DNA from: a virus
Length of the DNA stretch: 64,000 bases
Reading direction: 5' to 3' (one strand)
Virus record (IMG/VR): IMGVR_UViG_3300020420_000012
Coordinates: 1-64,000 of that record
Within the stretch, counting starts at the first letter, position 1. Each line of letters opens with the position of its first letter. Under the pieces are notes generated by a model that did not search any database, was not told the origin of the DNA, and saw nothing but the letters and a program-made list of their open reading frames with translations. This document shows positions 5,800-62,329 of this stretch, piece after piece. The position numbers were made by a program, and so were the translations under genes.

Positions 5800-6147
5800 T
5801 CAAGTAACCTGAGGAGTAACTTGTATGCGTCCTTCAAGTATTCTTTCAATAATAGTGTTACCTGAACTATCTGTAAACGATATTTCAACATCATAAACAT
5901 GTCTGCCGGATCTTAATGCAGCTGTTTGAGAATTTGTAAGAGTAAGCGTAGTTATTCCGCCTGTAACATCAGTGACATTTGTTGTAAAAGCGGTTGCTTC
6001 ACCAGCACTATCCGCATAATTTTTTTTAACTTTTGCTGCCACAGAGTAGCCGGTTAAGTTCTTTGCTGCACCGTTTTTATCGACTAAATGTAGTTCTATT
6101 GAGGTATCAGCACCTTGGTCAAAGGTGAATTCTTGAAATTGGGCCAT
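5800..6147 (-). CDS. Baseplate upper protein N-terminal-like (BppU-like) protein
   Basis: This 115-residue protein has a short beta-rich Ig-like or BppU-N-like pattern: an N-terminal FDQGADTSIELHLVDKNGAAKNLTGY segment, a central T-rich strand pair and a C-terminal ILEGRIQVTP strand. Such proteins link fibres to the baseplate in many phages. The start has a GGAG site 9 nt upstream. A perfect late box (TATAAATA) lies about 55 nt upstream on the same strand, so this is probably the first gene of a late fibre operon ending at the LamG gene. The role is inferred from family resemblance and position. Confidence 0.6.
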   Translation of the reverse strand: MAQFQEFTFDQGADTSIELHLVDKNGAAKNLTGYSVAAKVKKNYADSAGEATAFTTNVTDVTGGITTLTLTNSQTAALRSGRHVYDVEISFTDSSGNTIIERILEGRIQVTPQVT

Positions 6148-6200
6148 GAAATACTCCAGTTGATTTCTTTGTCGGACGTTACCGCCCCTGCCATTTAATC

Positions 6201-6208
6201 TATTTATA
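6201..6208 (-). promoter_or_regulatory. T4-type late promoter box TATAAATA (leftward)
   Basis: The plus strand reads TATTTATA, giving a perfect TATAAATA on the minus strand, followed by a leader of about 47 nt with a GGAG ribosome site for the gene starting at 6147. It sits back-to-back with the rightward box at 6221-6228. Confidence 0.75.
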
Positions 6209-6220
6209 CAAAAACACGTT

Positions 6221-6228
6221 TATAAATA
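6221..6228 (+). promoter_or_regulatory. Late promoter box TATAAATA, 5 nt before ATG (leaderless)
   Basis: This is a perfect TATAAATA followed by exactly 5 nt and the ATG at 6234. No Shine-Dalgarno sequence is present. In T4 late promoters the box spans about -13 to -6, so transcription would begin at or next to the A of the ATG. Confidence 0.7.
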
Positions 6229-6233
6229 CAATC

Positions 6234-7214
6234 ATGAAAAACTTTAATTACGTAGGATGGGATAGCCCACACCGAAAACTTGCTAATGTATTTTGGAAAA
6301 TCAACAGATACTGCAATTATTCATGTTCTTATTGCTGGCCTCACGCACATTCGAATAAAAAAGATTTTCTTGATGAAAATACATACTTATTAGCTATTGA
6401 TCATATGATAAATCAGTTTAAAAAAAATGGATTTGATGCTATAGGATGGGGGTGGGCTGGTGGAGAAGTAACTTTTAATCCACATTTTTTAACAATATTA
6501 GATGAGATTCAATCATATAAAATGAAGATGACTACTAACTTAGTTACTAATCTTTCTCAATCTTTAAAATGGTGGAAAATTTTTGTTGAAAATACTAAGA
6601 AATTTAAGAAAGTAAGAGTAAATGCCTCTTGGCATAAAGAATATCTAAAAGAAGAAAATAAAAAATTGCTATTTAAAGAAAAACTTGTTTTTTTAAAAGA
6701 CAATAATATTTCTACTGTTGTAAATTGCGTAATGTTACCTGGTGAATTAGAAGAAATGAAAAAACTTACAGATTTTTTTGATAAAGTTCAAATACCGGTT
6801 ATGATAAAAGCTTGTCGCGATGGTGGTAAAGTAATTAAAGGATATACAAAAGAAGAATTTGATTATGTACAAAAACAAATAAAACATAAAAATCCTAAAG
6901 TTATGCTTACAATAGATGATGATAATAACGAATATTATTATAGTTCAGCAGAACAGCTTATAGCTGGATCAAACTTAAATTTTTTAGGTTGGCAATGCAC
7001 AGCAGGTTATCAGTCTATTACAATAAGTGAAAATGGAACTGTTACAAGAGGTAGCGTTTGTAAGCCACAGATTCTAGGAAATATTAAAACTGGATTTAAA
7101 ATTTTTGATAAAGTAGAAAAATGCATTACAAATTGGAATTGTCATTGTGGTTCTGACTTAAAAATGCCAAAATGGAGATCAGATGAATATAATATGTCTG
7201 AAGTGGGGCGATAA
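6234..7214 (+). CDS. Radical SAM protein with C-terminal twitch/SPASM-like cysteines
   Basis: This 326-residue enzyme is predicted to cleave S-adenosylmethionine at a [4Fe-4S] cluster. The cluster motif CxxxCxxC is Cys27-Cys31-Cys34 (CNYSCSYC), followed by a GGE-type motif in GWGWAGGEVTFNP. The C-terminus has a second cysteine set (Cys255, Cys276, Cys297, Cys303, Cys305), typical of an auxiliary-cluster twitch/SPASM region. The substrate is unknown; these enzymes often modify peptides or sugars. The gene opens a plus-strand set of three overlapping genes and is opposite in strand to the surrounding fibre genes. Its message is predicted to be leaderless. It is distantly related to the radical SAM gene at 61292-62317. 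Confidence 0.85.
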   Translation: MKNFNYVGWDSPHRKLANVFWKINRYCNYSCSYCWPHAHSNKKDFLDENTYLLAIDHMINQFKKNGFDAIGWGWAGGEVTFNPHFLTILDEIQSYKMKMTTNLVTNLSQSLKWWKIFVENTKKFKKVRVNASWHKEYLKEENKKLLFKEKLVFLKDNNISTVVNCVMLPGELEEMKKLTDFFDKVQIPVMIKACRDGGKVIKGYTKEEFDYVQKQIKHKNPKVMLTIDDDNNEYYYSSAEQLIAGSNLNFLGWQCTAGYQSITISENGTVTRGSVCKPQILGNIKTGFKIFDKVEKCITNWNCHCGSDLKMPKWRSDEYNMSEVGR

Positions 7215-7899
7215 GTATAGTCATATTGAAGTAAATCGCTTGTATAAAATGTGTCTTAAATATTTTAAAGATGATTTTACTTTTACTTGCTATACTGAAA
7301 ACTCAAATCAAATTAATAAAGAAGTAAAAATATTACCATTAAAACTTGATTATGATCTAGAAAAATGGTGGTGGAAATTAACTTTATTTGAAAATAAAGT
7401 TAGTGATTTAACTATGTTTTTAGATCTTGATGTTGTAATACAAAATGATATTACTCATTATAAAAAATATTATCAAAAAAACAAAATTTATACAATAAAA
7501 GCTTGGTGGAAACCACATGCAAGAAATGCAAAACCTATGCCACCAGGATTTAATATGGACTTAAACTCATCAATAATAATATGGAAAGAAAACTTTAACG
7601 ATATTTGGAAACATTTTAATGATAATCCAGAATATTATATGAATAAGTATCAAGGAATAGATTCTTATCTATACTTTCATCACTTCGATAAACTTAAATT
7701 TTTTCCTAGAAAAGAAATCTATTCGAGACAACACGGGTTTGATGAATATAATATGTGGAGTCATGGAAAAAGAGTTCCTTTGTTTTTTGATGAGTCGTAT
7801 AATATTTGTATATTTAATAAATGGAAGATGGACAAAGATTATGGTGGACAAGGTTTGCCATTGGATGCTTATAAAGGAATGGAAAAGTTTTGGAAATAA
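7183..7899 (+). CDS. Glycosyltransferase-like protein (DxD, GT-A type)
   Basis: This 238-residue protein is a predicted nucleotide-sugar-dependent glycosyltransferase. The N-terminus has a Rossmann-like start (MNIICLKWGDKY) and a metal-binding DxD in MFLDLDVVIQ near residue 85. A conserved-looking NSSIIIWKE strand and a C-terminal aromatic segment follow. No membrane segment is present, so it should act in the cytoplasm. It overlaps the radical SAM gene by 32 nt and the next gene by 10 nt, implying translational coupling. The acceptor could be a virion protein or a host surface glycan; the sequence does not decide. Confidence 0.75.
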   Translation: MNIICLKWGDKYSHIEVNRLYKMCLKYFKDDFTFTCYTENSNQINKEVKILPLKLDYDLEKWWWKLTLFENKVSDLTMFLDLDVVIQNDITHYKKYYQKNKIYTIKAWWKPHARNAKPMPPGFNMDLNSSIIIWKENFNDIWKHFNDNPEYYMNKYQGIDSYLYFHHFDKLKFFPRKEIYSRQHGFDEYNMWSHGKRVPLFFDESYNICIFNKWKMDKDYGGQGLPLDAYKGMEKFWK

Positions 7900-8486
7900 A
7901 TTATAGTAAATGTTTAGATTGGTTTTATAGAAAGCATCCGGAAAAAATAAAAGATTATATTCAAAGTGTTTCTCCAAAACAAATCGAGTGTAAGCAATGG
8001 TTAGTAGATGAATTAAGTAATATTACAAATTTTAATAACATCTATTTAATTGGTGGTTGGTATGGGTTTCCTCTTATTAATTTTTTGGAAAAAAGTAACT
8101 TAATTAAAAAATTAGTTAATATAGACATGGACAAAACTGCAACAAGTGTTTGTGTAAACTTTAGTAAAATTTTTGATTATGATTTTGTTAAAACTGTTTC
8201 TAAGTCAATATACGAGCATACTGAAAATTTTATTGATGCTGATTTGATAATTAACACATCATCTGAACATATGTATGATATGCCAATTATTATGAGAAAT
8301 AGAAACTTTAATAAAAATTGTATTTTTGCTATTCAAAGTAACAATATGAGTCATATAAGTGATCACATAAACTGTAGTGCTTCATTAGAAGATTTTAAGT
8401 TTAAATCAAAATTTAATAAAATTATTTTTGAAGGTGTAAAAAAATTTAATAATTATGAACGATACATGATAATAGGATTATACTGA
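7890..8486 (+). CDS. Class I methyltransferase-like protein
   Basis: This 198-residue protein has a possible SAM-binding Rossmann start (NIYLIGGWYGFPLINFLEK), an acidic VNIDMDKTA strand end matching methyltransferase motif II, and DADLIINTSSEHMYDMP like motif IV. The start is a TTG preceded by AAGGA about 11 nt upstream, overlapping the glycosyltransferase gene. It ends convergently, overlapping the opposite-strand oxygenase-like gene by 9 nt. The substrate is unknown. A degenerate SAM-binding protein without activity is also possible. Confidence 0.6.
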   Translation: MEINYSKCLDWFYRKHPEKIKDYIQSVSPKQIECKQWLVDELSNITNFNNIYLIGGWYGFPLINFLEKSNLIKKLVNIDMDKTATSVCVNFSKIFDYDFVKTVSKSIYEHTENFIDADLIINTSSEHMYDMPIIMRNRNFNKNCIFAIQSNNMSHISDHINCSASLEDFKFKSKFNKIIFEGVKKFNNYERYMIIGLY

Positions 8487-9092
8487 TTTAATATCATCTA
8501 TCATCATTTGCCAAAAATTTTCATCAGGTATAACAAACCCTAGTGTCAATCTGTCTTCATAAGCTCGAGCACAGTGCCAAAATAATTTATTAGGTTCTTT
8601 ATTACTACCGTAATAACCAACTTTTGCCGTCCATCCGGCTGCATCAAACATTGTCACTGTTTTTAAGTCAGTTGGTTTTTTATATCTAAAAAAGCCATTT
8701 CCGTTTTTTGTATACGAAAATAAAATATTGTAACCGTTTGCATTGTGATTATTGTGCCAACCCATATATCCATTTTTTGGATAATACATTTTTACAGCAC
8801 AGTTTCTAGAACCTAATATAGAATTAAAATCTTGATCTATATTCCTTATTTTATCTCTAAAAGATATAGGAGTTGAATATGCACAAGCTAAATCAATTCC
8901 ATGTGTTTCTTCTGGAAACCCTACATGATTTTTTTTATTAATAGTATTATAATATTCTTCACTAGTATAATATTCGTCATTGTCTTTTTTGCCTTTAAGT
9001 TCAATTTTATTTTTATCAACTAAATTAAACCAATCTGAAAAATCATTTAAAAGATTTAATAATTCTTTATTGTTAATTTCAATACTTTGCAT
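8478..9092 (-). CDS. 2OG-Fe(II) oxygenase-like protein
   Basis: This 204-residue protein resembles phage 2-oxoglutarate/Fe(II) dioxygenases. The segment MYYPKNGYMGWHNNHN supplies a first histidine, followed by YNILFSYTKNGNGFF, and a distal WHCARAYEDRLTLGFVI supplies the second His and the 2OG-binding Arg. The usual HxD appears as HNN, so the iron ligand set is atypical. It overlaps the upstream glycosyltransferase gene by 14 nt. A role in hydroxylating a protein or sugar is inferred only from family resemblance and from the adjacent modification enzymes. Confidence 0.6.
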   Translation of the reverse strand: MQSIEINNKELLNLLNDFSDWFNLVDKNKIELKGKKDNDEYYTSEEYYNTINKKNHVGFPEETHGIDLACAYSTPISFRDKIRNIDQDFNSILGSRNCAVKMYYPKNGYMGWHNNHNANGYNILFSYTKNGNGFFRYKKPTDLKTVTMFDAAGWTAKVGYYGSNKEPNKLFWHCARAYEDRLTLGFVIPDENFWQMMIDDIKSV

Positions 9093-9786
9093 TTCTAATA
9101 CTTCTTGGTATAGGCTGATGTGTTATTACAACCGGCTGATTATTGAGTTCTTCTTTTTTATAGCAATAAACAAAGTTCCATCTTGCATCCGGATCTGGAA
9201 AGTAATCTCTTTTAATTTTATATTTAGTCTTGTTTTGCAGCCACCAATAGGTCCACATGTCCCACGGCCTTAAATATTCTGGATATAATTCATAGTTCCA
9301 ATTCCATAATCCAGAGTTTTGATCTACATAAAGAAGCCACCACTGTTTCATAAATTCAAGTGTGTGTTTTTTATTATTATATAAAAATAAACCGCAATGA
9401 TCTTCAAGCTTGCCTCCTTTAAATGTTGATTTAATTGAAGCTGCATATGTTCTTGCTCGAGTAATTGTAATATCATTTTCATGATTATGCTGATTAAATA
9501 TTAACTTTACGTCTTCATGACTAACAAAAGTATCGCAGTCTATGTAACAGGTTAATTTATATGGTGTTCTAGAAAGAGCCCAAAGTTTTGTTCTTTTATG
9601 ATTAGGTACATTTTTAGTTATTATATTATCAAAAATATTATAATCATTTTCTTCAGGCCAGCCATCTATCGTAAATAAAGTTATTTTACTTTCTGGCCAA
9701 TATTCTTTTAAACTTTGTGCTGAGTATCTTGCTGCTATTAAGAATGCTTTATTAATAGTTGCAACATAGATAAAACCATTATTCAT
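9079..9786 (-). CDS. Glycosyltransferase-like protein (DxD)
   Basis: This 235-residue protein has a GT-A type nucleotide-sugar transferase pattern: an N-terminal FIYVATINKAFLIAARYSAQSL segment, ITLFTID strand, and the metal-binding DCD in CYIDCDTFVS near residue 84. A GLFLYNNKKHTLEFMKQWW segment and the C-terminal VVITHQPIPRS end are also seen. It lacks membrane helices. It overlaps both neighbours and is co-transcribed with the oxygenase-like gene. With the second glycosyltransferase at 7183 it forms a pair within one island, consistent with glycan synthesis or fibre glycosylation. Confidence 0.7.
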   Translation of the reverse strand: MNNGFIYVATINKAFLIAARYSAQSLKEYWPESKITLFTIDGWPEENDYNIFDNIITKNVPNHKRTKLWALSRTPYKLTCYIDCDTFVSHEDVKLIFNQHNHENDITITRARTYAASIKSTFKGGKLEDHCGLFLYNNKKHTLEFMKQWWLLYVDQNSGLWNWNYELYPEYLRPWDMWTYWWLQNKTKYKIKRDYFPDPDARWNFVYCYKKEELNNQPVVITHQPIPRSIRNAKY

Positions 9787-10192
9787 TTTCTTTTAAGATC
9801 AACGCTGCTGAATAAGCAGTTACTTCAAATATAGTTTTAGCTTTTCTTATTTTAGATTTAAGTTCTCTATTTTTAGATTTTTTGATTTCTTCAATCTCAA
9901 AAGCTTCGAGCTTTGCTGAAAACAGCGCATCAGCTTTCATTCTTTCAATTTGTTCTTTTTCTGCTTCTTTTTTCTTTTGTCTATTTAAATTATCTTTTTC
10001 TAATAATTCATTTGTGTATGAATCAATTTGTTCTATTGTAAAAGTTTCAAATATTTCTTTCCAGTCTGGATTACCATCATTTGTGTTTACGACAGAAGCA
10101 ATTTGTTCTTTTCCATCAGTGAATCTAAATTTACACATGACTTGTGTTTTTTGTTGATTTCCCCAATAGGGGTCTAATATTGTGCGTGACAT
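9779..10192 (-). CDS. Conserved-type structural/hypothetical protein, coiled coil
   Basis: This 137-residue protein has a beta-rich N-terminus (MSRTILDPYWGNQQKTQVMCKFRF) and a long charged helix from about 65 to 120 rich in Lys and Glu, ending in FEVTAYSAALILKENE. Its function is not recognised. It has a GGAG site 6-10 nt before the ATG and overlaps the downstream glycosyltransferase gene by 8 nt. Its place just after the fibre-like gene at 10209-11225 suggests a fibre chaperone or baseplate accessory role, but this is inference. Confidence 0.55.
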   Translation of the reverse strand: MSRTILDPYWGNQQKTQVMCKFRFTDGKEQIASVVNTNDGNPDWKEIFETFTIEQIDSYTNELLEKDNLNRQKKKEAEKEQIERMKADALFSAKLEAFEIEEIKKSKNRELKSKIRKAKTIFEVTAYSAALILKENE

Positions 10193-10208: not shown

Positions 10209-11225
10209 TTAAGCGATTCTCACCCATAACCTAACTGTACTTATAGTTTCAGTAGTATTTTGAACTCTAAGACCTGCAAAAGTATCATTAAAAAAACCTG
10301 TGAAAGTATTATTAAATGAACCAGTAAAAGTTTTTGCTATTGTTCCAGCAAAAGAACCACCAACGTTTCCATTAAAGAATGCAGTGTATGTTGTATTAAA
10401 AAAACCTGTAAAAGTATTATTAAAAGTGCCAGTAAATGTATTTGAAAAACTTGGACCAGCAAAAGACGAAAGCGCAATCTCATATCGAGTATCATTAAGC
10501 GCTTGGCCAGCAACAACCCATGTGCCACCACTCGTTGGAGCGTTTGTTTGTAGTTTATATTGCCCTACGCCAGATTTGATCTGATTTCTTAGTCTTGTTG
10601 TATACTGTTTAATTTCTGTGTCAGTCATTTCTCTTAAAGATGAACTGGCGGCCACATACTTTAATGGCCTTACTGTTGCCGGTGTACTTGCAGGTGCTGA
10701 TTTTCTCCACAGTTTTGTAGTGTTAGAAGTATTTTGTAAACTATCTGTTATTGTGGCTTTTTCAACCCATGTTCCATCAGTCGGTGCAGAAGGCTGCAGC
10801 TTATACATTCCTACACCACTGTTTACTAGTTTTGTTTGAGTGTCTGCAATAAAGTCAACGTTAACTTTAGTGTCGTTCATTCTCTGGATATTATCTCCAG
10901 AGCTATCAAGTGCTAGTGGTCTTGTTGAATTTGATATGCTTTCAGATGCTGTACCTAAATTTTGATAAAAGTTAAATAAGGTTTGTTGAACGCTACTATC
11001 AGATGCTTCAGTACCAGGAGCGTTTGCTCTATTTGTATCAGTAAATGTTCCAATTAATGTTAATCCGCTAGTAATACCCGGATTTACCAATACTGATCCA
11101 ACATCTGAGTCCGATGAATTAAAATCTGTTAATAAAACATGAGCTAAATAGTCTTTATCAGCAGAATCATTCATCTCCTGAATTACAGAACCACTTGAAG
11201 TCTGTTTAAGAACGACATTAACCAT
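10209..11225 (-). CDS. Tail fibre-like structural protein with NTFTG repeats
   Basis: This 338-residue protein has three imperfect domains. Repeated segments end in MNDS/MNDT or MTDTEI and contain GVGMYKLQ or GVGQYKLQ, APTDGTW-V and NTxLWR. The C-terminal third has about eight short FNNTFTGxF repeats expected to form a fibrous beta structure. Such repeats occur in adhesins of marine T4-like phages. It has an AGGAAG ribosome site and is 3 nt from the upstream gene stop, consistent with the late fibre operon. Confidence 0.65.
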   Translation of the reverse strand: MVNVVLKQTSSGSVIQEMNDSADKDYLAHVLLTDFNSSDSDVGSVLVNPGITSGLTLIGTFTDTNRANAPGTEASDSSVQQTLFNFYQNLGTASESISNSTRPLALDSSGDNIQRMNDTKVNVDFIADTQTKLVNSGVGMYKLQPSAPTDGTWVEKATITDSLQNTSNTTKLWRKSAPASTPATVRPLKYVAASSSLREMTDTEIKQYTTRLRNQIKSGVGQYKLQTNAPTSGGTWVVAGQALNDTRYEIALSSFAGPSFSNTFTGTFNNTFTGFFNTTYTAFFNGNVGGSFAGTIAKTFTGSFNNTFTGFFNDTFAGLRVQNTTETISTVRLWVRIA

Positions 11226-11228: not shown

Positions 11229-11990
11229 TTAACTTCCTGGTGAACGAATAGTTTTTAATGTGTTACCTGCTACATCTTTTATCAATATAGTTACAGCACT
11301 TGCAAATTTTGCACTCGTAATTTGATTATCTGCTAACTTACCGTTTTCTATTGTTGTATTTGCAATTTTTGCATTTGTAACTGCTAAGTCATTAATTTTT
11401 GCGGTTTCTACAGCATCAGTTGCTAGCTTGCCGGCAGTAACTTGTAAATTAGCTATATGAGCAGTATCAATCGAAAGATCTGTATAGTGTTCAGAATTAA
11501 TTGCATCATCAGCTATTTTATCGCCGTTAACTGCATCGGCTGCTATTCTATCAGTCGTGACAGAGAGATTTTCAAGCATGCTACTATTTACTGTACCTGT
11601 TGGAATAAAGAATCTCTTTTCAGACGAATCAAAACCAATACCATTTGCACTATCTTTTTGAAACAATGAAGAAATGCTAGAGTTGTTTGCACTAATATTT
11701 GTGTTTATTAAGGCTTGTGTTTCTGCACTATCATATGAATTTGCACGAATCACTGAAGGTGCTCGAGCGCTATCAAGTAAGTTTAATCCAGCTACTAGAG
11801 ATAGTATGTTGTCTGAGTCTGTTTTAAGCACAAGTGAATTAACAGAATTTATAGCTTGCACTAAGTCAGAGTCAGCACTACCCGGTATGTTAGCCAAATT
11901 AGCAGGATCACCGACGTTAACTGATATTTGATTCGTTTGATTTACGAGCGTAGTTACTGGATCTGCTAATGCTATTATCGGTCTAACCAT
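11229..11990 (-). CDS. Tail fibre-like protein with DxI/A repeat coil
   Basis: This 253-residue protein has an N-terminus rich in Asp-Ser-Ala. About residues 130-235 carry a repeated pattern of roughly 10-15 residues (DRIAADAVNGDKIADDAI, AGKLATDAV, AKINDLAV, AKIANTTI, GKLADNQI) typical of trimeric beta-helical or coiled fibre shafts. A GGAG site precedes the ATG. It overlaps the upstream 71-residue gene by 8 nt. Function as a fibre component is inferred from composition and position. Confidence 0.65.
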   Translation of the reverse strand: MVRPIIALADPVTTLVNQTNQISVNVGDPANLANIPGSADSDLVQAINSVNSLVLKTDSDNILSLVAGLNLLDSARAPSVIRANSYDSAETQALINTNISANNSSISSLFQKDSANGIGFDSSEKRFFIPTGTVNSSMLENLSVTTDRIAADAVNGDKIADDAINSEHYTDLSIDTAHIANLQVTAGKLATDAVETAKINDLAVTNAKIANTTIENGKLADNQITSAKFASAVTILIKDVAGNTLKTIRSPGS

Positions 11991-12198
11991 CTAATTTCTC
12001 CACTATAGTTTTAAGCATAGATTTAATATCACCAACTTCATTTTTTAAATCTTCAAGTTCTTTTTCTTTATCTAAACGCTTTTGTTTTCTTTCTCTTGCT
12101 GCCTGTATTTCATTCTTATTTATATTCAATATAATTCCTGTACCTTTTACTCTTGCATAACCAGAATGGCCTTTTATTTTTACTAGATTTTGTTTCAT
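11983..12198 (-). CDS. Small coiled-coil protein
   Basis: This 71-residue protein has a basic N-terminus (MKQNLVKIKGHSGYARVKG) and a Lys/Glu heptad-like helix from about 30 to 70. No family function is recognised. The start codon overlaps the stop of the 531-residue gene (TAATG), implying translational coupling. A fibre assembly or connector role is possible from context. Confidence 0.6.
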   Translation of the reverse strand: MKQNLVKIKGHSGYARVKGTGIILNINKNEIQAARERKQKRLDKEKELEDLKNEVGDIKSMLKTIVEKLDG

Positions 12199-13793
12199 TA
12201 AACAGCCAATGCGATTATTCTTAAGTCTCTAATCAAAGGTACTTTAGCTTGATTTGTACTTCTCATAGTAATTTTAATTTGATATTTTGTAAAAGCTGAA
12301 ATCAAGTTACCACCTTCACCTCCTATTAGATATGTATACTGTTTAAAAACTTCTCGAGATTGTGAACTTGGAATTACATTTTCAGCTGGAGCTAAAGTAA
12401 AATTTTTAGTTTTTATATCTTCATCAGACGTTGCTGTTCTAAAATATAATTGAAAATCAGCTTCACTAGGTCTACTTGCAGATAAAAGTATTTTTAATCC
12501 AACAGCATCTTCTTCTAATTCTACAACTCTTGTAAAGTGTCGAGCTGCAGAGGATCCACCTACTGCAGAATCTTCACTACCAAAAACAAGAGGTGTGTTA
12601 AAATTAGGTCTGCTTAAAGCCGAATCTTGAAAGTCAATAACGTTATCACACAATGTAGCAGACATTCTTTGAGTATCAATCATAGGCGAAACATTAGAAT
12701 CTATTGTTGACAAGTTGACTCTAAAATCAAGTGACTTTGTTGTTGTGTCACTGAATAAAATATTTTCATTACTATCCGACATCACAACAAATCTACTTTC
12801 TGCTATATTATTTTTATTTCTTTGTAATGCTTGAAAGTCACTTACTTTGTCTTGGACTATTTCAGCGCCTGCGTACGATGATGTTTTAACCGGTTTAAAA
12901 GCTGTTGCAACAAACGTATTTTTTGGTTGTAAGATTTGTGTGTGTGGATAAATTAAGTTATATGGAATGTGCGTCGTAGCGAAGCAACTATCTCCGCCTC
13001 CAACTGCATCAGCTGATGCCGCTGCGCCAGCTTCGAATGTATATCCAGTAAAATCAACAGCAGTTACGTCTCTACTTCCTTCTAAATTGGCCTTCGAAAT
13101 TCCACCTACACCTGCCGTAGGTATTCCTCTTATACTTACTTTACTACCTACTTGTAAGCCACTGCTTCTATGTGTTACTCTTACGGTAGCATCTCCGCTT
13201 GAAGTAATTATTGGATTTGTAAATAATCTTTTTTGAGCTAAAGAAGCGTTATGAAAAATTGCCGTGCCTCGTGTGTTGTTAAATTTAGCTTGATGTAATC
13301 GAAAAGTTAAATCTTGATTTTGAGACGGGGTAAACGTCGCTCCGTTTTGTGAGTAAAATAAACTTCCTAGAACAGGCTGTTTGTTTATTCTTTTTGAAGT
13401 AGCACCGAAGGTAAACTCGTCCATCTCTGCTATATAAATTAAATAATCAAGTGAGTCAGCAATTACTACAATGGCAAAGTCTTCTTTACCTTTTAAAAAT
13501 ATCGGTTCATCAAATCTAAATTCAGTAGGTGTCAGCTCTGGGCCTGTTGTATCAACATTAACACTTGAAGCAGATTTTGTTACAATACTGCCTGGTATTA
13601 TTTGTGAGGAAGAAGGATACCCATTTACCATAGGTCTTAGTTGCACTTGTACAGGTAATGCTGTTCCAGCTGTAGGTTTGGCTTGAAAATATAAATCAAT
13701 CTGAGTACAGTAAACACCGTTAATTTCTTCTATAAAGAATGATTGAGCAATCGGTTGTTTGTTTAATCGATAACCGGTTGAAGTTACTGGCAT
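12198..13793 (-). CDS. Virion structural protein, baseplate-associated (DUF4815-partner type)
   Basis: This 531-residue beta-rich protein opens with RLNKQPIAQSFFIEEINGVYCTQIDLYF and has FRFDEPIFLKGKEDFAIVVI and RINKQPVLGSLFYSQNGATF blocks. From memory, similar blocks occur in the C-terminal part of large DUF4815 baseplate/fibre proteins of marine T4-like phages. Here it is a separate gene with its own AGGAG site, 38 nt downstream of the DUF4815 gene. The split is thus apparently real and not a frameshift. It is predicted to sit at the baseplate periphery. Confidence 0.6.
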   Translation of the reverse strand: MPVTSTGYRLNKQPIAQSFFIEEINGVYCTQIDLYFQAKPTAGTALPVQVQLRPMVNGYPSSSQIIPGSIVTKSASSVNVDTTGPELTPTEFRFDEPIFLKGKEDFAIVVIADSLDYLIYIAEMDEFTFGATSKRINKQPVLGSLFYSQNGATFTPSQNQDLTFRLHQAKFNNTRGTAIFHNASLAQKRLFTNPIITSSGDATVRVTHRSSGLQVGSKVSIRGIPTAGVGGISKANLEGSRDVTAVDFTGYTFEAGAAASADAVGGGDSCFATTHIPYNLIYPHTQILQPKNTFVATAFKPVKTSSYAGAEIVQDKVSDFQALQRNKNNIAESRFVVMSDSNENILFSDTTTKSLDFRVNLSTIDSNVSPMIDTQRMSATLCDNVIDFQDSALSRPNFNTPLVFGSEDSAVGGSSAARHFTRVVELEEDAVGLKILLSASRPSEADFQLYFRTATSDEDIKTKNFTLAPAENVIPSSQSREVFKQYTYLIGGEGGNLISAFTKYQIKITMRSTNQAKVPLIRDLRIIALAV

Positions 13794-13831
13794 CTTATAA
13801 TTCTCCTATATTAATTATTTTTTTCATAATT

Positions 13832-16800
13832 CTACCAATTTCCATGATCACTAGCATCACCAGCACCCGGACCAGAAGCATCGGCCTCAACGTCTCCAGA
13901 GAAATCATTGCTTGGATTTGAACCTGATTGATCTGCACCATCAGCTTCAACATCTCCGGAATAATCATTGTTATCTCCACCCCACTCATTTCCTGGAGGA
14001 TCACCAGATGTGTCGTTTGCGTTGTCTGCATCTATTTCAGTCCCCGGACCATGTGTGCCATCGCCTTCATCACCACCACCGCCGCCTTGGCTGTTATTGT
14101 TAATGTAGTAACCTTGAATTCCAAGAACTCGAGTTGATGTATATGTTGCTTCTTTTGTATCTAAGTAACCTGTAGCGGTATATGCTGCTGCGGCATGGCT
14201 ACCAGCGTCATCTTCATTATCTACATTTATATCCATTATTTTAAACTTTACTGAACCCGTACGTACTCTTTTGTCATCGTTATTAGGAACAATAAATGAA
14301 CCTACGACTTCGCCGTTTCCATCAGTTACAAGATTGTCTACTGATCCACCAGATGGATGTGTATACACGTCTTTTAAAGTATTTCCTGGATCTGTGTTTA
14401 TGGTTGAATAGTTAGTAAAACCTCCGGTTTCTTCTCTTACTAGATCGCCTAAATTAAATCCATCAATAAATGCAAAATGTTTTGTGTTTGGTCTTAATCC
14501 TGTGGCTTTGAAAAATATTTGTCTCGCTCTACAAAAAGGTATGAACGCTGTCTGAATTACTCTATCTTCTATTAAATCAAGAACAATTTGATCTGATACA
14601 ACTCTATTAACCATATTACTAATTTGTTGAGTTTGATTATTTACCGCTAATTCTTCAGTAGAAATACCACCCCAACTCCATGACCAGTTATTCCAGTTAA
14701 AAGCATTTTGTGTGTTAAGTACTGTTCCGCCAGGTATAGATATGTCTGGCAATCTTTCAACGTCTCTCCATTCATCTGAAGCCGGCGATAAAATAATTGT
14801 GCCTTCATATATTGTAATGTTGAATGGATTTATTCTTATTGCTTTAGTAGCGTCTTTTTGATTAATATATAAATCTTCAGTAAAAGACATGTATATGTTA
14901 TCACCTCTTCTTACAGTGCCTAAAGCCAATGAAGCAGCTGAATCAAAGAATAATTTAACGTTATTTTCTTCAAACGCTGGTCTTAATATATGTCCAATAG
15001 GATCAATAGATGCTCTGTATTCTTTATGAGTAATATCTGATCCTTTATGATTATTAAAATTATCTACAAAAAAACCTGATTTAGTTCTATCATTACCAGC
15101 GGAGTCGAGTACTTCAAGATGTTTTGTATCTAACTCAAGTAAATTTAGCGATGTTATTTCTTCAAGTCTATCAATCCTTTTTTCTATGTTTGTAATGTCT
15201 TTCATTGTATGACGCTTATGTCTTATAGCTCTTACTTCAACGTCAGAGTCATCATCTGTGTTTGGATTTAATTTAATGTCATATAATCCAAGTGTATTTT
15301 CTGGTTTTTCAGGAAATCCTGGATTAAAACCAGCAGTTCCATTAAAAAATCTTACTATTCCATCTCTATCAATAACTAACTTTCCAGTTTTTGCTAAGTA
15401 ATATTCATTTGTTGATAAAGCTAAAGTTCCAGGTTGAGGAAGCTCGTTAACAATTGCTCCTTTAGAAGTATCTGAAAATTGACCAGCAGAATCCATCACT
15501 GATCTAAAATCTAAAAAGTTTCTTAAGAAAATTCTTTTACCACTTGATAATCTAAATGTTGGAATCTTATCGTAATCAATTTGACCATCGTATGAATTAA
15601 CACCAAAAAAGTCACCACCTTGGTGCGTAAAATGCTTGAATGTCACTGTTACATTACCTGTTGGAGCAGTTCTACCTGCTCTTAAAATAAGTCTTCCTAG
15701 TGCATAATGATTGTCTCTTTGACCATCATCGACAAAAAAGTCATCAGCAAATGAAAGACTACTATCAGTTGATTTTACAATTTCATCAACACTAAATATG
15801 TCAGCCTTTGCAAGATTTATTTGTTTGTTAACAACTGTGTATTGCTTAGTAGTGGTTGTTAAAACTTTTTGTCTTTGAGTTGGATTAGATTTATTAACGT
15901 ATGCAAAAACTTGTACCGCTTGACTTGGTGGTAAACCTGTAATTGTTGCACCGGTTCCACCTCCTGTTATGCTAGTACTAGCATCGCCGGTTAAAGTACT
16001 TGGTTGAAATATATCACTATCAGTACCAATTATCCAGTCACCTTCATTTGTAAATACTTCGTTACTTGCTAAACCACTTAATGAAAAAGAACCGGCACCA
16101 TCGGTAGTACCAGTAAACCTTCTTTGTACGGCAAAAGATACAGGTGTTATATTCTTTGGTCTAGGATGAGATACACCAAACAGTGATTTATTTATTGTTG
16201 GTTCTTTTATTGCAGCCTTCGAGTTTTGAAGTACTGGCTCGAAATATTGAGTTCCACTAGTTCCTATACTTTTGACTTGACGAAACGATTTGCCTGAATT
16301 CATCTGTATATCAAATAAATAAAATCTTAAATTATTGCCATCTTCATTTATTGACTTAACACGCGCAGTACCTATTGTTGATCCACCGTAATCTACAGCA
16401 TCTCTTAAATTAAGTTGTTCAAAAATTGCAATGTTAGGTAATTTTTTATTTGAGGTGTCTACACTTGGATTAACAATAACATAATTACCAAACTCTATTT
16501 GCGTAGCTTCGTTTGTAAACGTTAACGTTTCTGTTGGTTTAGCAATTCTTAATGTAGTAGGAAAATCTCTTGCTGCTCTAAATCCTTCGACTACCGCAAC
16601 CCCAGGGCTTACATTCAATAATAAATGAGTATTTTGAGAATCTTTTTCAAAATTTACGAAAAAAGGTTTTACAAAATAATCACCAGAATTTTCTTTAATT
16701 CTTTGTGCGATTACTTTATTAGGTACATTATATGAGTTAGTATCATTTACTGCATTGTAAATTACACCTTTTTTAACAGTTGCGACATGGACAAAATTTT

Positions 16801-17587
16801 CATCAGAATTTACATCACTTCTTTCTGCAAATGTTAAAGTTATTCTATATCTATCTGCTCCAGGTGCAGTTAAGTTTGGATTTGCGCCTTGGTTATCAAA
16901 TAAACTAACGTCGTCTGCTGAAGTTACGACTTGTTCTAAAGTTTTAAATCCAATTTCTGTGTTAGCGTCATCAGAATATTGAGATATTATTTTTGATAAA
17001 TCTTGAGTGAAAACAAAGTGCCCCGCAACGTAGTATATACCTGAAAGAATAGTCGCTTGTATTCCAGCTCCAACAGCAGGATCATCTACAGTATTAGTAC
17101 CTTGAACATCCATTGTTGTGGAGCCACCACCAACAGTAAGAGTTTCACCAGCTGTAAATCTTTTAGTAGTACTTCCACCGCTAGTGCCAGTGTTTATGTA
17201 TTGCACATAAAGAGTATCTATAGAAAGATTGCTTTGCGATGCCGGCAAAACTTCAATTATTTTTGCTACTATCGAAGATGTACCACCTTGAATGTTTTGA
17301 TTAACTATTGTGCTAGTATCAATACCTGATAGAGCTCCTCCAGCTAATTTAACAAACTCATACCTACTGTTTAAGTTTACACCACCAGGTTTGACAACGC
17401 CACCTTCTTTAAATACATTATTACCAAATCTTGTAATTTGTTCTTGTAATATAGTTTGTAATTGATTTAGTTCTCTAGCTTGTAATGCTTTTCCGGAGTT
17501 AAACAGTATTTTATGAAATCCTGCACTATCCGAAAAATCATCTTTATAAGTTGTACTAAAAGTTTGATTTGTTAATGTACTTACCAT
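13832..17587 (-). CDS. DUF4815-type baseplate structural protein
   Basis: This 1251-residue structural protein has an N-terminus containing FNSGKALQARELNQLQTIL, the signature I associate with DUF4815 phage baseplate proteins. A large beta-rich middle follows. The C-terminal ~90 residues are a Gly/Asp-rich low-complexity tail with repeats of the type SGDVEADGA. An AGGAA site precedes the ATG and the gene follows the stop at 17596 closely. It is predicted to be a peripheral baseplate wedge or fibre-attachment protein. The acidic tail may bind divalent cations or be a linker. Confidence 0.75.
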   Translation of the reverse strand: MVSTLTNQTFSTTYKDDFSDSAGFHKILFNSGKALQARELNQLQTILQEQITRFGNNVFKEGGVVKPGGVNLNSRYEFVKLAGGALSGIDTSTIVNQNIQGGTSSIVAKIIEVLPASQSNLSIDTLYVQYINTGTSGGSTTKRFTAGETLTVGGGSTTMDVQGTNTVDDPAVGAGIQATILSGIYYVAGHFVFTQDLSKIISQYSDDANTEIGFKTLEQVVTSADDVSLFDNQGANPNLTAPGADRYRITLTFAERSDVNSDENFVHVATVKKGVIYNAVNDTNSYNVPNKVIAQRIKENSGDYFVKPFFVNFEKDSQNTHLLLNVSPGVAVVEGFRAARDFPTTLRIAKPTETLTFTNEATQIEFGNYVIVNPSVDTSNKKLPNIAIFEQLNLRDAVDYGGSTIGTARVKSINEDGNNLRFYLFDIQMNSGKSFRQVKSIGTSGTQYFEPVLQNSKAAIKEPTINKSLFGVSHPRPKNITPVSFAVQRRFTGTTDGAGSFSLSGLASNEVFTNEGDWIIGTDSDIFQPSTLTGDASTSITGGGTGATITGLPPSQAVQVFAYVNKSNPTQRQKVLTTTTKQYTVVNKQINLAKADIFSVDEIVKSTDSSLSFADDFFVDDGQRDNHYALGRLILRAGRTAPTGNVTVTFKHFTHQGGDFFGVNSYDGQIDYDKIPTFRLSSGKRIFLRNFLDFRSVMDSAGQFSDTSKGAIVNELPQPGTLALSTNEYYLAKTGKLVIDRDGIVRFFNGTAGFNPGFPEKPENTLGLYDIKLNPNTDDDSDVEVRAIRHKRHTMKDITNIEKRIDRLEEITSLNLLELDTKHLEVLDSAGNDRTKSGFFVDNFNNHKGSDITHKEYRASIDPIGHILRPAFEENNVKLFFDSAASLALGTVRRGDNIYMSFTEDLYINQKDATKAIRINPFNITIYEGTIILSPASDEWRDVERLPDISIPGGTVLNTQNAFNWNNWSWSWGGISTEELAVNNQTQQISNMVNRVVSDQIVLDLIEDRVIQTAFIPFCRARQIFFKATGLRPNTKHFAFIDGFNLGDLVREETGGFTNYSTINTDPGNTLKDVYTHPSGGSVDNLVTDGNGEVVGSFIVPNNDDKRVRTGSVKFKIMDINVDNEDDAGSHAAAAYTATGYLDTKEATYTSTRVLGIQGYYINNNSQGGGGGDEGDGTHGPGTEIDADNANDTSGDPPGNEWGGDNNDYSGDVEADGADQSGSNPSNDFSGDVEADASGPGAGDASDHGNW

Positions 17588-31777: not shown

Positions 31778-31785
31778 TATTTATA
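31778..31785 (-). promoter_or_regulatory. Late promoter box TATAAATA for the baseplate operon
   Basis: The plus strand TATTTATA gives a perfect minus-strand TATAAATA. It overlaps the start codon of the divergent head-completion gene at 31785 and drives gp48 leftward. Confidence 0.75.
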
Positions 31786-32291
31786 TGGTTTATTCAGGTC
31801 GTTACATAGTTAAAAACAAAACAAAATATAAAGGTGACTTTAATAACGTTATTTATAGGTCGCTTTGGGAGCGTGCTGTGTTTGGTTGGTGCGATAATAA
31901 TCCAAAAATTAAATATTGGAGTTCAGAAGAAGTTATAGTTCCATATTATTACGAAGTCGATAAAAAATATCATAAGTACTATGTTGACGTTAAAATAGTT
32001 TATGAAGATAAAACACTTATAGTTGAAATTAAACCTGAAAGAGAGACTGTGCCACCAACAGGTGAAAAAAGAACTAAGAGATACATTGCTGAAGGTTTAA
32101 ACTATGTGAAGAATATGAACAAATGGGAGGCTGCAGATAATTATGCAAAAGATAGAGGATGGGAGTTTCACATTTGGACAGAAAAAACGTTACAAGAAAT
32201 GAAACTTTTGCCGAAGCCTGTACCGGGTAAACTTAAAAAGTATACACCTCTAAAGCCATTTCGTAAAAGAAAACGTAAGAAAAGGTTATAA
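31785..32291 (+). CDS. 4: Head completion protein gp4-like (TnsA/endonuclease fold)
   Basis: This 168-residue protein matches T4 gp4 (head completion). GRYIVKNKTKYKGDFNNVIYRSLWERAVFGWCDNNP and the nuclease-like YYVDVKIVYEDKTLIVEIKPERE block (D...EIKP) resemble the TnsA-type fold. A basic C-terminus ends in RKRKKRL. It completes filled heads before tail joining. It is divergently arranged from gp48 with 42 nt between starts. No strong ribosome site is visible. Confidence 0.85.
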   Translation: MVYSGRYIVKNKTKYKGDFNNVIYRSLWERAVFGWCDNNPKIKYWSSEEVIVPYYYEVDKKYHKYYVDVKIVYEDKTLIVEIKPERETVPPTGEKRTKRYIAEGLNYVKNMNKWEAADNYAKDRGWEFHIWTEKTLQEMKLLPKPVPGKLKKYTPLKPFRKRKRKKRL

Positions 32292-32294
32292 ATA
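32287..32294 (+). promoter_or_regulatory. Late promoter box TATAAATA, 5 nt before ATG
   Basis: This perfect TATAAATA contains the stop codon of the gp4-like gene and is followed by exactly 5 nt and the ATG at 32300. No Shine-Dalgarno sequence precedes that ATG, so a leaderless transcript is predicted. Confidence 0.68.
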
Positions 32295-32299
32295 GAAAC

Positions 32300-32890
32300 A
32301 TGAGTAACTTATTTCAAAAACTTGAACTTGAAGCTTTTCGAAAAGGCATTACACCTAGGACAAGAGAATCAAGAGAATGGTTTCGTAAAAAAGTACAACA
32401 ACTAACTCGAGTCAATCGAGCGCAACTCGTTAGAAGTGATGAAGTAAAAGAAAGAAGTAGTCATAGATATGGTACAATGGTTATGTTTACTTATGATCCT
32501 AAACTAAAAGAAAAGCTACCTTACTATGATACGTTTCCACTAGTAATACCTGTTGAACCAGCAAAAGGTGGATTTAGAGGATTAAATCTACATTACTTAC
32601 CACCAGTTTTAAGAGCAAAATTTTTAGATGGTTTACTAGAAACAACTAATAATGATAAGTATGATGAAAGTACTCAATTTAAATTAACATACAATTTACT
32701 TAAAAGCGCTTCAAGATATAGATACTTTAAGCCTTGTATTAAACATTATCTTTTAGAACACGTAAGATCAAGATTTGCAGAGGTGAATTCACCAGAATGG
32801 GAGATTGCAACTTTCTTACCGATTGCAAGATGGCAAAAACAAAGTGCAAATAGAGTATATTCTGAATCAAGAAGGATAGCTAATGGCTAG
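32300..32890 (+). CDS. Conserved T4-like phage protein next to gp4
   Basis: This 196-residue protein has GITPRTRESREWFRKKVQQL near the N-terminus, GTMVMFTYDPKLKEKLPYYDTFPLVIPVEP in the middle and a C-terminal WEIATFLPIARWQK segment. I recognise it as a protein conserved beside gp4 in marine T4-like phages, without a secure function. A head or neck role, possibly like DNA-end protector gp2, is only positional inference. Its last bases overlap the tube-fold gene by 8 nt. Confidence 0.6.
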   Translation: MSNLFQKLELEAFRKGITPRTRESREWFRKKVQQLTRVNRAQLVRSDEVKERSSHRYGTMVMFTYDPKLKEKLPYYDTFPLVIPVEPAKGGFRGLNLHYLPPVLRAKFLDGLLETTNNDKYDESTQFKLTYNLLKSASRYRYFKPCIKHYLLEHVRSRFAEVNSPEWEIATFLPIARWQKQSANRVYSESRRIANG

Positions 32891-33575
32891 TAGTGTAGAC
32901 GAATTAAAAGCATTGGTTAATACTAAACTTGGATTTGCAAGAGCAAATCGATTCTTAGTAACTTTACCAACAAATTTTGGTGGTGGAGGAGGGTTGATAG
33001 GTGGAGTATTAGGTCTATTAAATCTTGGTGGTGGCGGTGCATCTGGTAGAGAATTAAATATATTATGCAGCAATGCAACTTTGCCAGCAAAACAGATTCT
33101 TACGAATGATAGAAGAATAGGTATGGAGTTTCAAAAAGTTGCTTATGGATACGCAGTTGATGATGTAAGCATGACTTTTTATTTAATGAACGATTACGGA
33201 GTAAAAGAATATTTTGATGCTTGGAGAAATACAATAATACCTGAAGAAGGTTTTAATGCGTTTACATCTAAATACAAAGATGAGTATGCCAGAGATGTTA
33301 CTATACATCAACTCAGACAGCCACTTAAAGGTTTTAGTAAACAAATAGGACCTATAAGATTTAACGCTGGTATTGGCGGTGGAAGTGTTTATTCGGTTGA
33401 TTTAATTGATGCGTTTCCAATAGCAACTAGTGCTATAGAACTTAACAATGAACTAGATGGTCTAGTTCAATTAACAGTGTCCTTTGCATTTACAAACTGG
33501 AGAAGATCGAAAAATGTGCAAGGATTTATTAACATGGATATTAATACACCACTTGGTGGAATTGATATATTATAG
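32883..33575 (+). CDS. 54: Tail tube-fold protein (gp19/gp54 family, probably tube initiator)
   Basis: This 230-residue protein has the contractile tail tube fold pattern: FARANRFLVTLPTNFGG, ILCSNATLPAKQILTNDRRIGMEFQKVAYGYAVDDVSMTFYLMNDYGVKEYFDAWRN, and a C-terminal GLVQLTVSFAFTNWRRSKN strand. A Gly-rich insertion lies near residue 35-55. Gp19 forms the tube and gp54 initiates it. Position just before gp26 and near gp48 favours gp54, but the two are paralogues and sequence inspection cannot separate them. Its ATG follows AGGATAGCT. Confidence 0.75.
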   Translation: MASSVDELKALVNTKLGFARANRFLVTLPTNFGGGGGLIGGVLGLLNLGGGGASGRELNILCSNATLPAKQILTNDRRIGMEFQKVAYGYAVDDVSMTFYLMNDYGVKEYFDAWRNTIIPEEGFNAFTSKYKDEYARDVTIHQLRQPLKGFSKQIGPIRFNAGIGGGSVYSVDLIDAFPIATSAIELNNELDGLVQLTVSFAFTNWRRSKNVQGFINMDINTPLGGIDIL

Positions 33576-33584
33576 GAGTGATTG

Positions 33585-34301
33585 ATGGGTTTACCTAAAC
33601 TATCAAATGATAAACCAATTTATGAACTAACTGTACCATCAACTAATCAATTAGTTAAGTACAGACCATTTTTGGTGAAAGAACAAAAAGCTATGCTTGT
33701 GGCATTCGAATCAAAAGACACAAAGCAAATATTAAATTCAATACTTCAATGTATTGAAAATTGTGTTGAAGGCATTGACGTCAAAACACTTTCTACTTTT
33801 GATGTTGATTATATTTTCACAAAGGTAAGAGCAAAATCAGTTGGTGAAACTTCTAAAATTTTGATGGCATGCTCAGCGTGTAACGAAGAAAATGAAGTTA
33901 ACATAAACTTAGATAACATTAAGTTAACTAATGCAGAATTAAAAGATAATGTTATTGAATTAAATAATGATATTGCAATTACAATGAAATATCCTACTTA
34001 TTTCGACATGCTCAAACATGGAAACTTATTCAAAGAAGATGTTTCTGAAGCAGCAGTTGTTTTTGATAATATGAAAATGTGTATGCATTCAGTACAAACT
34101 GAGAATGAAAACGTTTTAATTAAAGATGAAACTGATGAAGAGATTGAAACTTTTGTTAATAGTTTAAATAATGTTCAAATGCAAAAGATTATGAATTTTG
34201 TTGAAGGATTACCAAATTTAGTTTATGAAGATACTTTTGAATGCAAAAAATGTAAAAAAGAAAACATAGTTAAATTACAGGGGCTCAATGATTTTTTTTA
34301 G
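33585..34301 (+). CDS. 26: Baseplate hub / tail assembly chaperone gp26-like
   Basis: This 238-residue protein belongs to the gp26-type T4 baseplate family: IYELTVPSTNQLVKYRPFLVKEQKAMLVAFESKD is diagnostic. Two CxxC pairs (CSAC and CKKC) suggest a small zinc site. I choose the ATG at 33585 rather than the TTG one codon earlier because TAGGAG lies 6 nt upstream. The gene ends in a run of eight T with an in-frame TAG. A -1 slip there would fuse it to the frame running to 34495. Confidence 0.85.
   Translation: MGLPKLSNDKPIYELTVPSTNQLVKYRPFLVKEQKAMLVAFESKDTKQILNSILQCIENCVEGIDVKTLSTFDVDYIFTKVRAKSVGETSKILMACSACNEENEVNINLDNIKLTNAELKDNVIELNNDIAITMKYPTYFDMLKHGNLFKEDVSEAAVVFDNMKMCMHSVQTENENVLIKDETDEEIETFVNSLNNVQMQKIMNFVEGLPNLVYEDTFECKKCKKENIVKLQGLNDFF
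34292..34298 (+). promoter_or_regulatory. Predicted -1 programmed frameshift site (T_TTT_TTT)
   Basis: In the gp26 frame the sequence is GAT TTT TTT TAG. Eight consecutive T (34292-34299) provide a perfect T TTT TTT slippery heptamer directly before the stop. After a -1 slip the frame continues as TTA GTT AAC without a stop to 34495. The placement between a chaperone-like gene and the tape measure matches the conserved frameshift position of tail assembly genes. Confidence 0.6.
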
Positions 34302-34495
34302 TTAACCTCTCTCATGAAACGTTGGAGAACTATTTCAAGACGAATTTTTTAATGATGCAACATTTCAACTATTCATTATCAGACTTAGAAGGAATGTTAC
34401 CGTGGGAGAGAGAGGTTTATATAATATTATTAAACGAGCACCTAGAGGAAAAACAAAGAGAGCAAAGTGGCAGCAACATTAGCAGATATCAATAA
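34292..34495 (+). CDS. gp26 frameshift extension / small tail chaperone frame
   Basis: This frame has no stop from the slippery site to TAA at 34493-34495. It encodes LVNLSHETLENYFKTNFL and then MMQHFNYSLSDLEGMLPWER, followed by EVYIILLNEHLEEKQREQ. The YSLSDLEGMLPWEREVY pattern resembles second frames of tail assembly chaperones in other phages. It may be made by -1 frameshifting from gp26 or independently from ATG 34352, which lacks a good ribosome site. It overlaps the tape measure start by 29 nt. Confidence 0.65.
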   Translation, partial: FFLVNLSHETLENYFKTNFLMMQHFNYSLSDLEGMLPWEREVYIILLNEHLEEKQREQSGSNISRYQ

Positions 34496-62317: not shown

Positions 62318-62329
62318 TGAGCATCTCTT

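What the first reader, a model, noticed from the sequence alone, without database searches (positions are those of the whole stretch)
6234..9786. Radical SAM, two glycosyltransferases, methyltransferase-like and oxygenase-like genes inserted between fibre genes
Five probable modifying enzymes interrupt the fibre block; three are on the opposite strand to everything around them and the two sets converge with a 9-nt overlap. Such a set could decorate tail fibres or remodel surface glycans. I know of no described pathway with this exact composition.
Basis: partly seen in the sequence, partly recalled or inferred. Interest (0 to 1): 0.65.

Follow-up and report, generated by a model that had tools for sequence, protein, structure and literature searches.

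The report
Phage enzymes linked to repetitive fibre
Two of these five phage enzymes, an odd iron-oxygenase and a sugar-transferring enzyme, travel with one repetitive tail fibre and probably modify it, while the other three form a separate, swappable cassette beside it.

Summary
The five genes are real and placed as described, but they are two modules, not one pathway. Module 1, on the fibre strand, is an oxygenase-fold protein (8478-9092, "OG") and a glycogenin-fold glycosyltransferase (9079-9786, "GTB"). It tracks a fibre (10209-11225) ending in F/Y-[ST]-G-x tetrapeptide repeats. In 39 loci chosen by a neighbouring baseplate gene, 9 have repeats, OG and GTB and 30 have none; no locus is mixed. 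Whole-contig searches agree. Five OG-less contigs match only the fibre's head, without repeats. Module 2, on the opposite strand, is a radical SAM, a second glycosyltransferase and a methyltransferase-like protein. The latter two recur together with or without repeats; the radical SAM was found in one other contig.

Best explanation: OG and GTB oxidise and glycosylate the fibre repeats. OG's metal site reads H-x-N, not H-x-D/E, in 61 of 62 distinct ORFs (the other is a fragment). Repeats hold 0.3% proline and 0.07% lysine, so collagen-type hydroxylation is unlikely; Asn/Asp, Thr/Ser or Tyr are candidates. The OG members scanned match no Pfam or PHROG family. Modification is inferred, not shown.

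The parts
6234..7214 (+). Module 2: radical SAM protein (326 aa), CX3CX2C starting at residue 27; extra C-terminal cysteines suggest a second Fe-S cluster
   Evidence: Pfam PF04055 38.2 bits over cut-off 29.5; one close relative, 82%, in L006
7183..7899 (+). Module 2: glycosyltransferase GT-A (238 aa), invariant DxD (D81, D83)
   Evidence: PHROG 1962 glycosyltransferase E 1.2e-10; alignment A4; weak LgtC profile match E 0.09
7890..8486 (+). Module 2: methyltransferase-like Rossmann protein (198 aa, TTG start)
   Evidence: spermidine synthase profile match E 1.7e-4; Spermine_synth matched by 3 of 14 relatives; fused to a GT-A homologue in L157 and within 150 nt of one in 73 of 81 distinct copies
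8478..9092 (-). Module 1: OG, 204-aa 2OG-oxygenase-fold protein with H113-x-N115...H173...R181
   Evidence: AlphaFold2 pLDDT 94.7; PHD2 Z 11.0, P. putida P4H Z 9.8; residues invariant in 49 aligned sequences
9079..9786 (-). Module 1: GTB, 235-aa glycogenin-fold glycosyltransferase with invariant D83xD85
   Evidence: AlphaFold2 pLDDT 93.2; glycogenin Z 17.2, rmsd 2.9 over 183 residues; invariants in 41 sequences
9779..10192 (-). 137-aa protein between the repeat fibre and GTB; relatives are also present in contigs without OG/GTB
10209..11225 (-). Repeat fibre (338 aa); tetrapeptide repeats from about residue 260 (FSNT FTGT FNNT FTGF FNTT YTAF ... FNDT FAGL); proposed substrate of module 1
11229..11990 (-). 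Tail fibre protein, 253 aa, upstream on the same strand
   Evidence: PHROG 892 tail fiber E 2.7e-18
12198..17587 (-). Two large baseplate genes of VrlC type (531 and 1251 aa) that border the host recognition region
   Evidence: homologues of the 531-aa protein annotated VrlC in Pelagibacter phage Mosig and Synechococcus phage S-BM1 (queried with the L040 homologue)
5800..6147 (-). L-shaped tail fibre assembly protein (115 aa), other border of the module pair
   Evidence: PHROG 1084 E 1.8e-22 and 3304 E 4.5e-14
6201..6228 (.). Divergent pair of TATAAATA boxes (6201-6208 on -, 6221-6228 on +) between the assembly gene and module 2; T4 late-promoter-like (consensus recalled)
   Evidence: both boxes kept in L006, L007 and L011, only the fibre-side box in L008 and L040

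Best explanation
Module 1 (OG + GTB) is a virion-maturation pair that modifies the tetrapeptide repeats of the tail fibre encoded just upstream. OG, a double-stranded beta-helix oxygenase related in fold to prolyl hydroxylases but with Asn in place of the iron-binding carboxylate, oxidises residues of the repeat (most likely Asn/Asp; Pro and Lys are almost absent). GTB, a glycogenin-like glycosyltransferase, adds sugar to the oxidised residue or to the Thr/Ser/Tyr hydroxyls next to it. The sugar coat would stiffen the fibre, protect it or change its adhesion. Module 2 (radical SAM, GT-A, MT) is a separate, exchangeable, probably late cassette; GT-A and MT probably work together on one methylated sugar, on the fibre or on the host surface. 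Shown here: gene structure, folds by prediction, conserved residues, strict co-occurrence of OG, GTB and repeats. Inferred: catalytic activity, the order of steps, the residue modified, the sugar, the effect on the fibre, and the fibre as substrate.
For: Co-occurrence: of 39 loci chosen by VrlC with at least 6 kb after it, 9 have repeats+OG+GTB, 30 none, 0 mixed (all-or-none chance 4.7e-9 if loci were independent, which they are not). On 43 whole contigs OG, GTB and the repeat part of the fibre profile hit the same 11 (9 of these 11 were VrlC-chosen, 2 OG-chosen). 5 of the 32 others have only the fibre's head. Two long OG-less contigs read almost end to end hold no ORF with 4 or more tetrads. 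Of 82 OG loci, 81 have GTB directly upstream by script and the 82nd (L053) has it overlapping by 76 nt; a fibre of this family lies upstream in 67 of 67 with room, 66 of them with repeats. In the phage collection (50,697 records) GTB and the repeat fibre match one record, C48C1, which also has OG beside GTB. Genes from 10192 down to 8478 overlap as in an operon. Fold. Acceptor choice: tetrads hold Pro 0.33%, Lys 0.07%, Asn 7.6%, Thr+Ser 25%, Tyr 18%. A carboxylate-less 2OG hydroxylase is known: AspH (PMC13168262, abstract and passages). GT-A/MT coupling.
Against: No biochemical data. The repeat/OG link rests on 5 changes on a tree (3 forced by well-supported branches); in independent pairs OG/GTB went the same way 3 of 3, which cannot reach significance. 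L059 keeps OG+GTB with a fibre that has 0 scored tetrads, and a giant-phage record (LR756511) has an OG homologue with no GTB or repeats within 10 kb. Phage C48C1 and contig G029 carry extra OG copies away from the GTB pair. The H-x-N site may be inactive. Glycogenin-fold enzymes also build host polysaccharide (LgtC is among the GTB matches), and published opinion assigns pelagimyophage GT8 enzymes to host O-chain change (PMC7029224, passages). A strict link could also arise if the three genes move as one block.
Confidence: 0.6

Rival explanations
1. All five enzymes remodel the host's surface polysaccharide late in infection, to block superinfection or aid release; their place among the fibre genes reflects a shared host-recognition island.
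For: Published view for pelagimyophages (PMC7029224, passages); GT-A has a weak LgtC profile match and GTB's fold matches include LgtC; module 2 varies greatly and may carry radical SAM, Asn-synthase-like and acetyltransferase domains.
Against: OG and GTB follow the repeats, not the rest of the island; no reason for a host-glycan enzyme to vanish with a fibre's repeat tail while the fibre head stays.
Confidence: 0.2
2. OG is not an oxygenase but a catalytically dead beta-helix protein that acts as a chaperone or adaptor for the repeat fibre, bringing GTB to it.
For: Asn replaces the iron-binding carboxylate in 61 of 62 distinct ORFs; strict link to the fibre.
Against: Both His and the Arg are invariant in 49 sequences, which a dead fold would not need; AspH works without the carboxylate.
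Confidence: 0.15
3. The linkage is only block inheritance: repeat fibre, OG and GTB travel as one cassette and have no biochemical relation.
For: Tight gene overlap; few independent gains or losses on the tree.
Against: In C48C1 the repeats sit in a far larger protein yet OG and GTB stay beside them; some OG-less contigs keep a fibre with a related head but no repeats.
Confidence: 0.1

Closest known systems
Mimivirus collagen-modifying enzymes (L230 lysyl hydroxylase / glucosyltransferase, R699), PMC9546862
   Same: A virus encodes an Fe/2OG hydroxylase and glycosyltransferases that hydroxylate and glycosylate a viral repetitive protein
   Different: Collagen repeats with Lys as acceptor; here the repeats are F/Y-[ST]-G-x with almost no Lys or Pro, the two activities lie in separate proteins, and the oxygenase has H-x-N and no Pfam family
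Human AspH (aspartate/asparagine beta-hydroxylase), PMC13168262
   Same: 2OG hydroxylase that lacks the carboxylate iron ligand
   Different: No sequence match to its Pfam family was found for OG; OG's best fold matches are PHD2/P4H-type enzymes
Glycogenin / GT8-type glycosyltransferases (glycogenin, GlyE, UGGT, Skp1 galactosyltransferase)
   Same: GTB's predicted fold (Z 17.2 to 14.8) and invariant DxD
   Different: 15-19% identity to glycogenin in the aligned rows; GTB of the window matches no Pfam family at E 0.1 apart from a sub-threshold DUF1647
Host recognition cluster of pelagimyophages (Zaragoza-Solas et al. 2020, PMC7029224)
   Same: Glycosyltransferases and radical SAM cassettes among tail fibre genes next to VrlC
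   Different: That paper, in the passages read, proposes host O-chain modification and describes neither the repeat fibre nor the OG/GTB pair

Membership tests
Fe(II)/2OG-dependent oxygenases | Double-stranded beta-helix fold | tested here: met
   pLDDT 94.7 model; PHD2 Z 11.0 rmsd 3.4 over 145 residues; 29 Foldseek matches at E <= 0.001, top rows AlkB, PolD, PHD2, P4H
Fe(II)/2OG-dependent oxygenases | Two His ligands and a 2OG-binding basic residue | tested here: met
   H113, H173, R181 invariant in 49 sequences; assigned by order and spacing, PHD2 numbering recalled, metal binding itself not tested
Fe(II)/2OG-dependent oxygenases (canonical 2-His-1-carboxylate) | H-x-D/E motif | tested here: not met
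   H-x-N in 61 of 62 distinct ORFs, the other a 72-aa fragment; H-S-N also in LR756511
AspH / Asp_Arg_Hydrox family | Pfam sequence match | tested here: not met
   no such match among 13 members scanned at E 1
AspH-type mechanism | Iron held by two His plus water, with hydroxylase activity | not testable with these tools
   needs a crystal structure and an assay
GT-A / glycogenin-type glycosyltransferases | GT-A fold with DxD | tested here: met
   glycogenin Z 17.2; D83 and D85 invariant in 41 sequences
GT8 (Pfam Glyco_transf_8) | Pfam sequence match | tested here: not met
   window GTB only: no match at E 0.1
Radical SAM superfamily | CX3CX2C and Pfam score over cut-off | tested here: met
   CNYSCSYC at residues 27-34
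SPASM/twitch radical SAM peptide maturases | Curated SPASM/twitch model over cut-off | tested here: not met
   best NCBIfam scores: STM4011 family 44.5 bits (cut-off 200), twitch domain 37.7 (cut-off 170)
Class I SAM methyltransferases | Rossmann fold with SAM-binding motif | tested here: inconclusive
   profile match to spermidine synthases E 1.7e-4; Methyltransf_25 in 1 of 14 relatives
Pelagimyophage host recognition cluster | Variable fibre region next to VrlC | tested here: met
   VrlC-type genes at 12198-17587
Pelagimyophage host recognition cluster | Other border at neck gene gp14; SAR11 host | not tested
   host of this contig unknown

The most novel reading that the evidence does not exclude
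Marine T4-like phages carry an undescribed virion protein-modification system: a virus-restricted oxygenase family with an H-x-N iron site that, with a glycogenin-like transferase, oxidises and glycosylates aromatic tetrapeptide (YTGN-type) repeats of a tail fibre. It would be a phage counterpart of collagen hydroxylation and glycosylation with a different repeat, residue and active site.
Probability: 0.4. Interest if true: 0.8.

Novelty: new variant of a known kind. Interest (0 to 1): 0.6.

Why it matters
Phage-encoded glycosyltransferases in pelagimyophages have been explained as host-surface modifiers (PMC7029224). A strict genetic link between an oxygenase, a glycosyltransferase and a repeat fibre points to the virion itself as the target and gives a direct test by virion mass spectrometry.

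Tried and rejected
One five-gene pathway: rejected, because the window's radical SAM was found only in L006's contig and module 2 genes occur without module 1 and the reverse.

Prolyl or lysyl hydroxylation of the repeats: rejected as unlikely, because Pro is 0.33% and Lys 0.07% of 7640 repeat residues in 70 distinct proteins. The composition was counted on stretches picked by a regular expression that fixes F/Y at position 1 and limits positions 2 and 3, so only position 4 is free of that choice.

Sequence search of the PDB with OG found nothing meaningful; only the predicted fold showed the relation. PDB search with the radical SAM gave nothing useful. PHROG search of 49 OG members gave no family. 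A single-sequence scan for MT relatives found none, though relatives were found beside the other genes.

A DNA pattern for the repeats was too blunt: weak counts (1 to 3) in OG-less contigs were at the level of its reversed control, and it missed repeats known to be in G043; I used the fibre profile instead.

Low-complexity filtering in the tblastn search of the phage collection could hide repeat proteins in phage records whose non-repeat parts differ, so 'one record' is a lower bound.

Literature: ten searches (one search was not accepted) of the open-licence library. In the titles and abstracts listed, and in the passages of PMC7029224, I saw no account of this oxygenase/transferase/repeat-fibre set; most subscription papers are not in the library. 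Papers seen: PMC7029224 (outline with abstract, passages), PMC13168262 (outline with abstract, passages), PMC9546862 (passages); all others as search listings only. The T4 late-promoter consensus and the PHD2 residue numbers are recalled.
Full report
WHAT IS THERE. The window is bases 1-64000 of an 81,635-base IMG/VR virus record, a T4-like phage by its T4 baseplate, gp32 and VrlC-type genes. The - strand genes from 10192 down to 8478 overlap each other by 8 and 14 nt, and the + strand genes by 32 and 10 nt, so each strand reads as one operon. An 86-nt gap (6148-6233) separates the + strand set from the fibre-assembly gene and holds two divergent TATAAATA boxes. The motif is not enriched in the window as a whole (12 against 9.9 expected). 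Of five other loci looked at, both boxes are kept in L006, L007 and L011, and only the fibre-side box in L008 and L040.

TWO MODULES. tblastn with window proteins on the fetched loci, ORF matching and profile searches show that the block splits. Module 1 is repeat fibre - 137-aa gene - GTB - OG. Module 2 is MT - GT-A - variable enzymes on the other side. Module 2 often has several glycosyltransferases and, in the 17 loci mapped, a CX3CX2C protein in seven (L006, L007, L008, L011, L027, L053, L054). Pfam found Radical_SAM in 11 of 42 non-GT/MT cassette proteins that I submitted (42 of the 78 listed, chosen by size and place). The window's own radical SAM was found in one other contig only. MT lies within 150 nt of a GT-A homologue in 73 of 81 distinct copies and is fused to one in L157.

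OG FOLLOWS THE REPEATS. Both genome contigs also carry the fibre, GTB, MT and GT-A, so I read them as phage contigs binned with a bacterium. Of 82 OG loci, 81 have GTB directly upstream by script; the other, L053, has it with a 76-nt overlap that my rule excluded. Of 67 with at least 2.6 kb upstream, 67 have a fibre of this family and 66 have at least 4 tetrads; the exception is L059. These loci were chosen by OG, some are near-copies, and some contigs were already held from earlier scans, so they show conservation but not linkage.

For linkage I chose loci by the VrlC-type gene (80 kept of 584 confirmed). Of the 80, 39 have at least 6 kb after VrlC; 9 have repeats, OG and GTB, and 30 have none. 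The 41 loci with less room were left out. Whole-contig searches of these 39 plus four contigs (L037, L040 chosen by GT-A; L053, L071 chosen by OG) found OG in 11 of 43, GTB in the same 11, and the repeat part of the fibre profile in the same 11. Five of the 32 others (G010, G026, G027, G028, G034) match only profile positions up to 259, i.e. the fibre's head. Two OG-less contigs of 121 and 141 kb, read in 13 stretches, hold no ORF with 4 or more tetrads; one ORF has 3. A tree of VrlC for 40 rows (the 39 plus phage Mosig) needs 5 changes of the repeat trait, 3 forced by well-supported branches; OG/GTB go with the repeats in 3 of 3 independent pairs, while MT does not follow them. Three pairs cannot reach significance, so the linkage is strong in count but modest in independent events. 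L123 and L124 have identical VrlC parts and count twice.

In the phage collection of 50,697 records, GTB and the repeat fibre match one record (C48C1) and OG matches C48C1 and, weakly, LR756511. In C48C1 the repeats lie in a protein of more than two thousand residues, followed by the 137-aa relative, GTB, OG and the fibre-assembly gene.

STRUCTURE AND CHEMISTRY. OG's model (49 sequences, pLDDT 94.7) is a double-stranded beta-helix; best VIA-align matches are PHD2 (Z 11.0, rmsd 3.4, 145 residues), PiuC and a Shewanella oxygenase (10.2), then P4H, Tpa1 and OGFOD1. H113, N115, H173 and R181 are invariant in 49 sequences; H-x-N holds in 61 of 62 distinct ORFs, the other being a fragment. AspH shows that a 2OG hydroxylase can work with two His and water (PMC13168262); that paper also likens the site to 2OG halogenases. 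GTB's model (41 sequences, pLDDT 93.2) is a glycogenin-type fold (Z 17.2), with GlyE, UGGT, Skp1 galactosyltransferase and LgtC also matched; the fold does not tell protein from glycan acceptors.

The tetrads of 70 distinct repeat proteins (7640 residues) read F/Y - T/S/A/V - G/R - N/T/S/A/D; the window's own are listed. Pro (0.33%), Lys (0.07%) and Cys (0) are nearly absent. The residues available are Asn/Asp, Thr/Ser and Tyr/Phe. I favour Asn/Asp oxidation by OG with sugar added by GTB to that hydroxyl or to Thr/Ser/Tyr; this is inference.

WHAT IS KNOWN. A pelagimyophage paper places glycosyltransferases and radical SAM cassettes in a host recognition cluster after VrlC and proposes host O-chain change (PMC7029224). 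Viral hydroxylation plus glycosylation of a repetitive viral protein is known in mimivirus collagens (PMC9546862). I therefore rate this a new variant of a known kind, with an undescribed oxygenase family at its centre.

VERDICT. Observation confirmed; interpretation partly supported. Fibre modification is the best reading for OG and GTB (0.6). The radical SAM, GT-A and MT are a separate cassette whose target is open.

Noticed in passing
61292-63016 (-): A second radical SAM protein (341 aa, Pfam E 2.8e-14) sits next to a PHROG 3704 ferredoxin (E 2.4e-105), a possible electron donor.
   Followed up: no
31785-36260 (+): A second opposite-strand island with a TnsA-like endonuclease, a T4 baseplate protein and a 597-aa protein without a PHROG or Pfam match.
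   Followed up: no
L003 11887-12555 (phage C48C1); G029:C1:127762-128331: Extra OG copies away from the GTB pair; in C48C1 one stands next to a tail tube gene.
   Followed up: partly
L203 9674-10237 (LR756511, 595-kb uncultured phage): Distant OG homologue (E 2.1e-13) with H-S-N at the metal site, beside an NAD-synthase-like gene (label by eye), without GTB or repeats within 10 kb.
   Followed up: partly
L157 8923-10242: GT-A and MT fused in one 439-aa ORF.
   Followed up: partly
L007 11199-13804; L039/L040 and L005 cassettes: Module 2 in relatives carries a second 2OG oxygenase over its Pfam cut-off (PF13640, L007), and nitroreductase-like, carbamoyltransferase-like and aminotransferase-like genes, resembling the enzyme island of Pelagibacter phage Mosig (several labels by eye).
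   Followed up: partly
L121 (Muricauda MAG), L122 (Bifidobacterium breve MAG): Bacterial MAG contigs that carry the phage fibre, GTB, OG, MT and GT-A genes, probably mis-binned phage sequence.
   Followed up: partly
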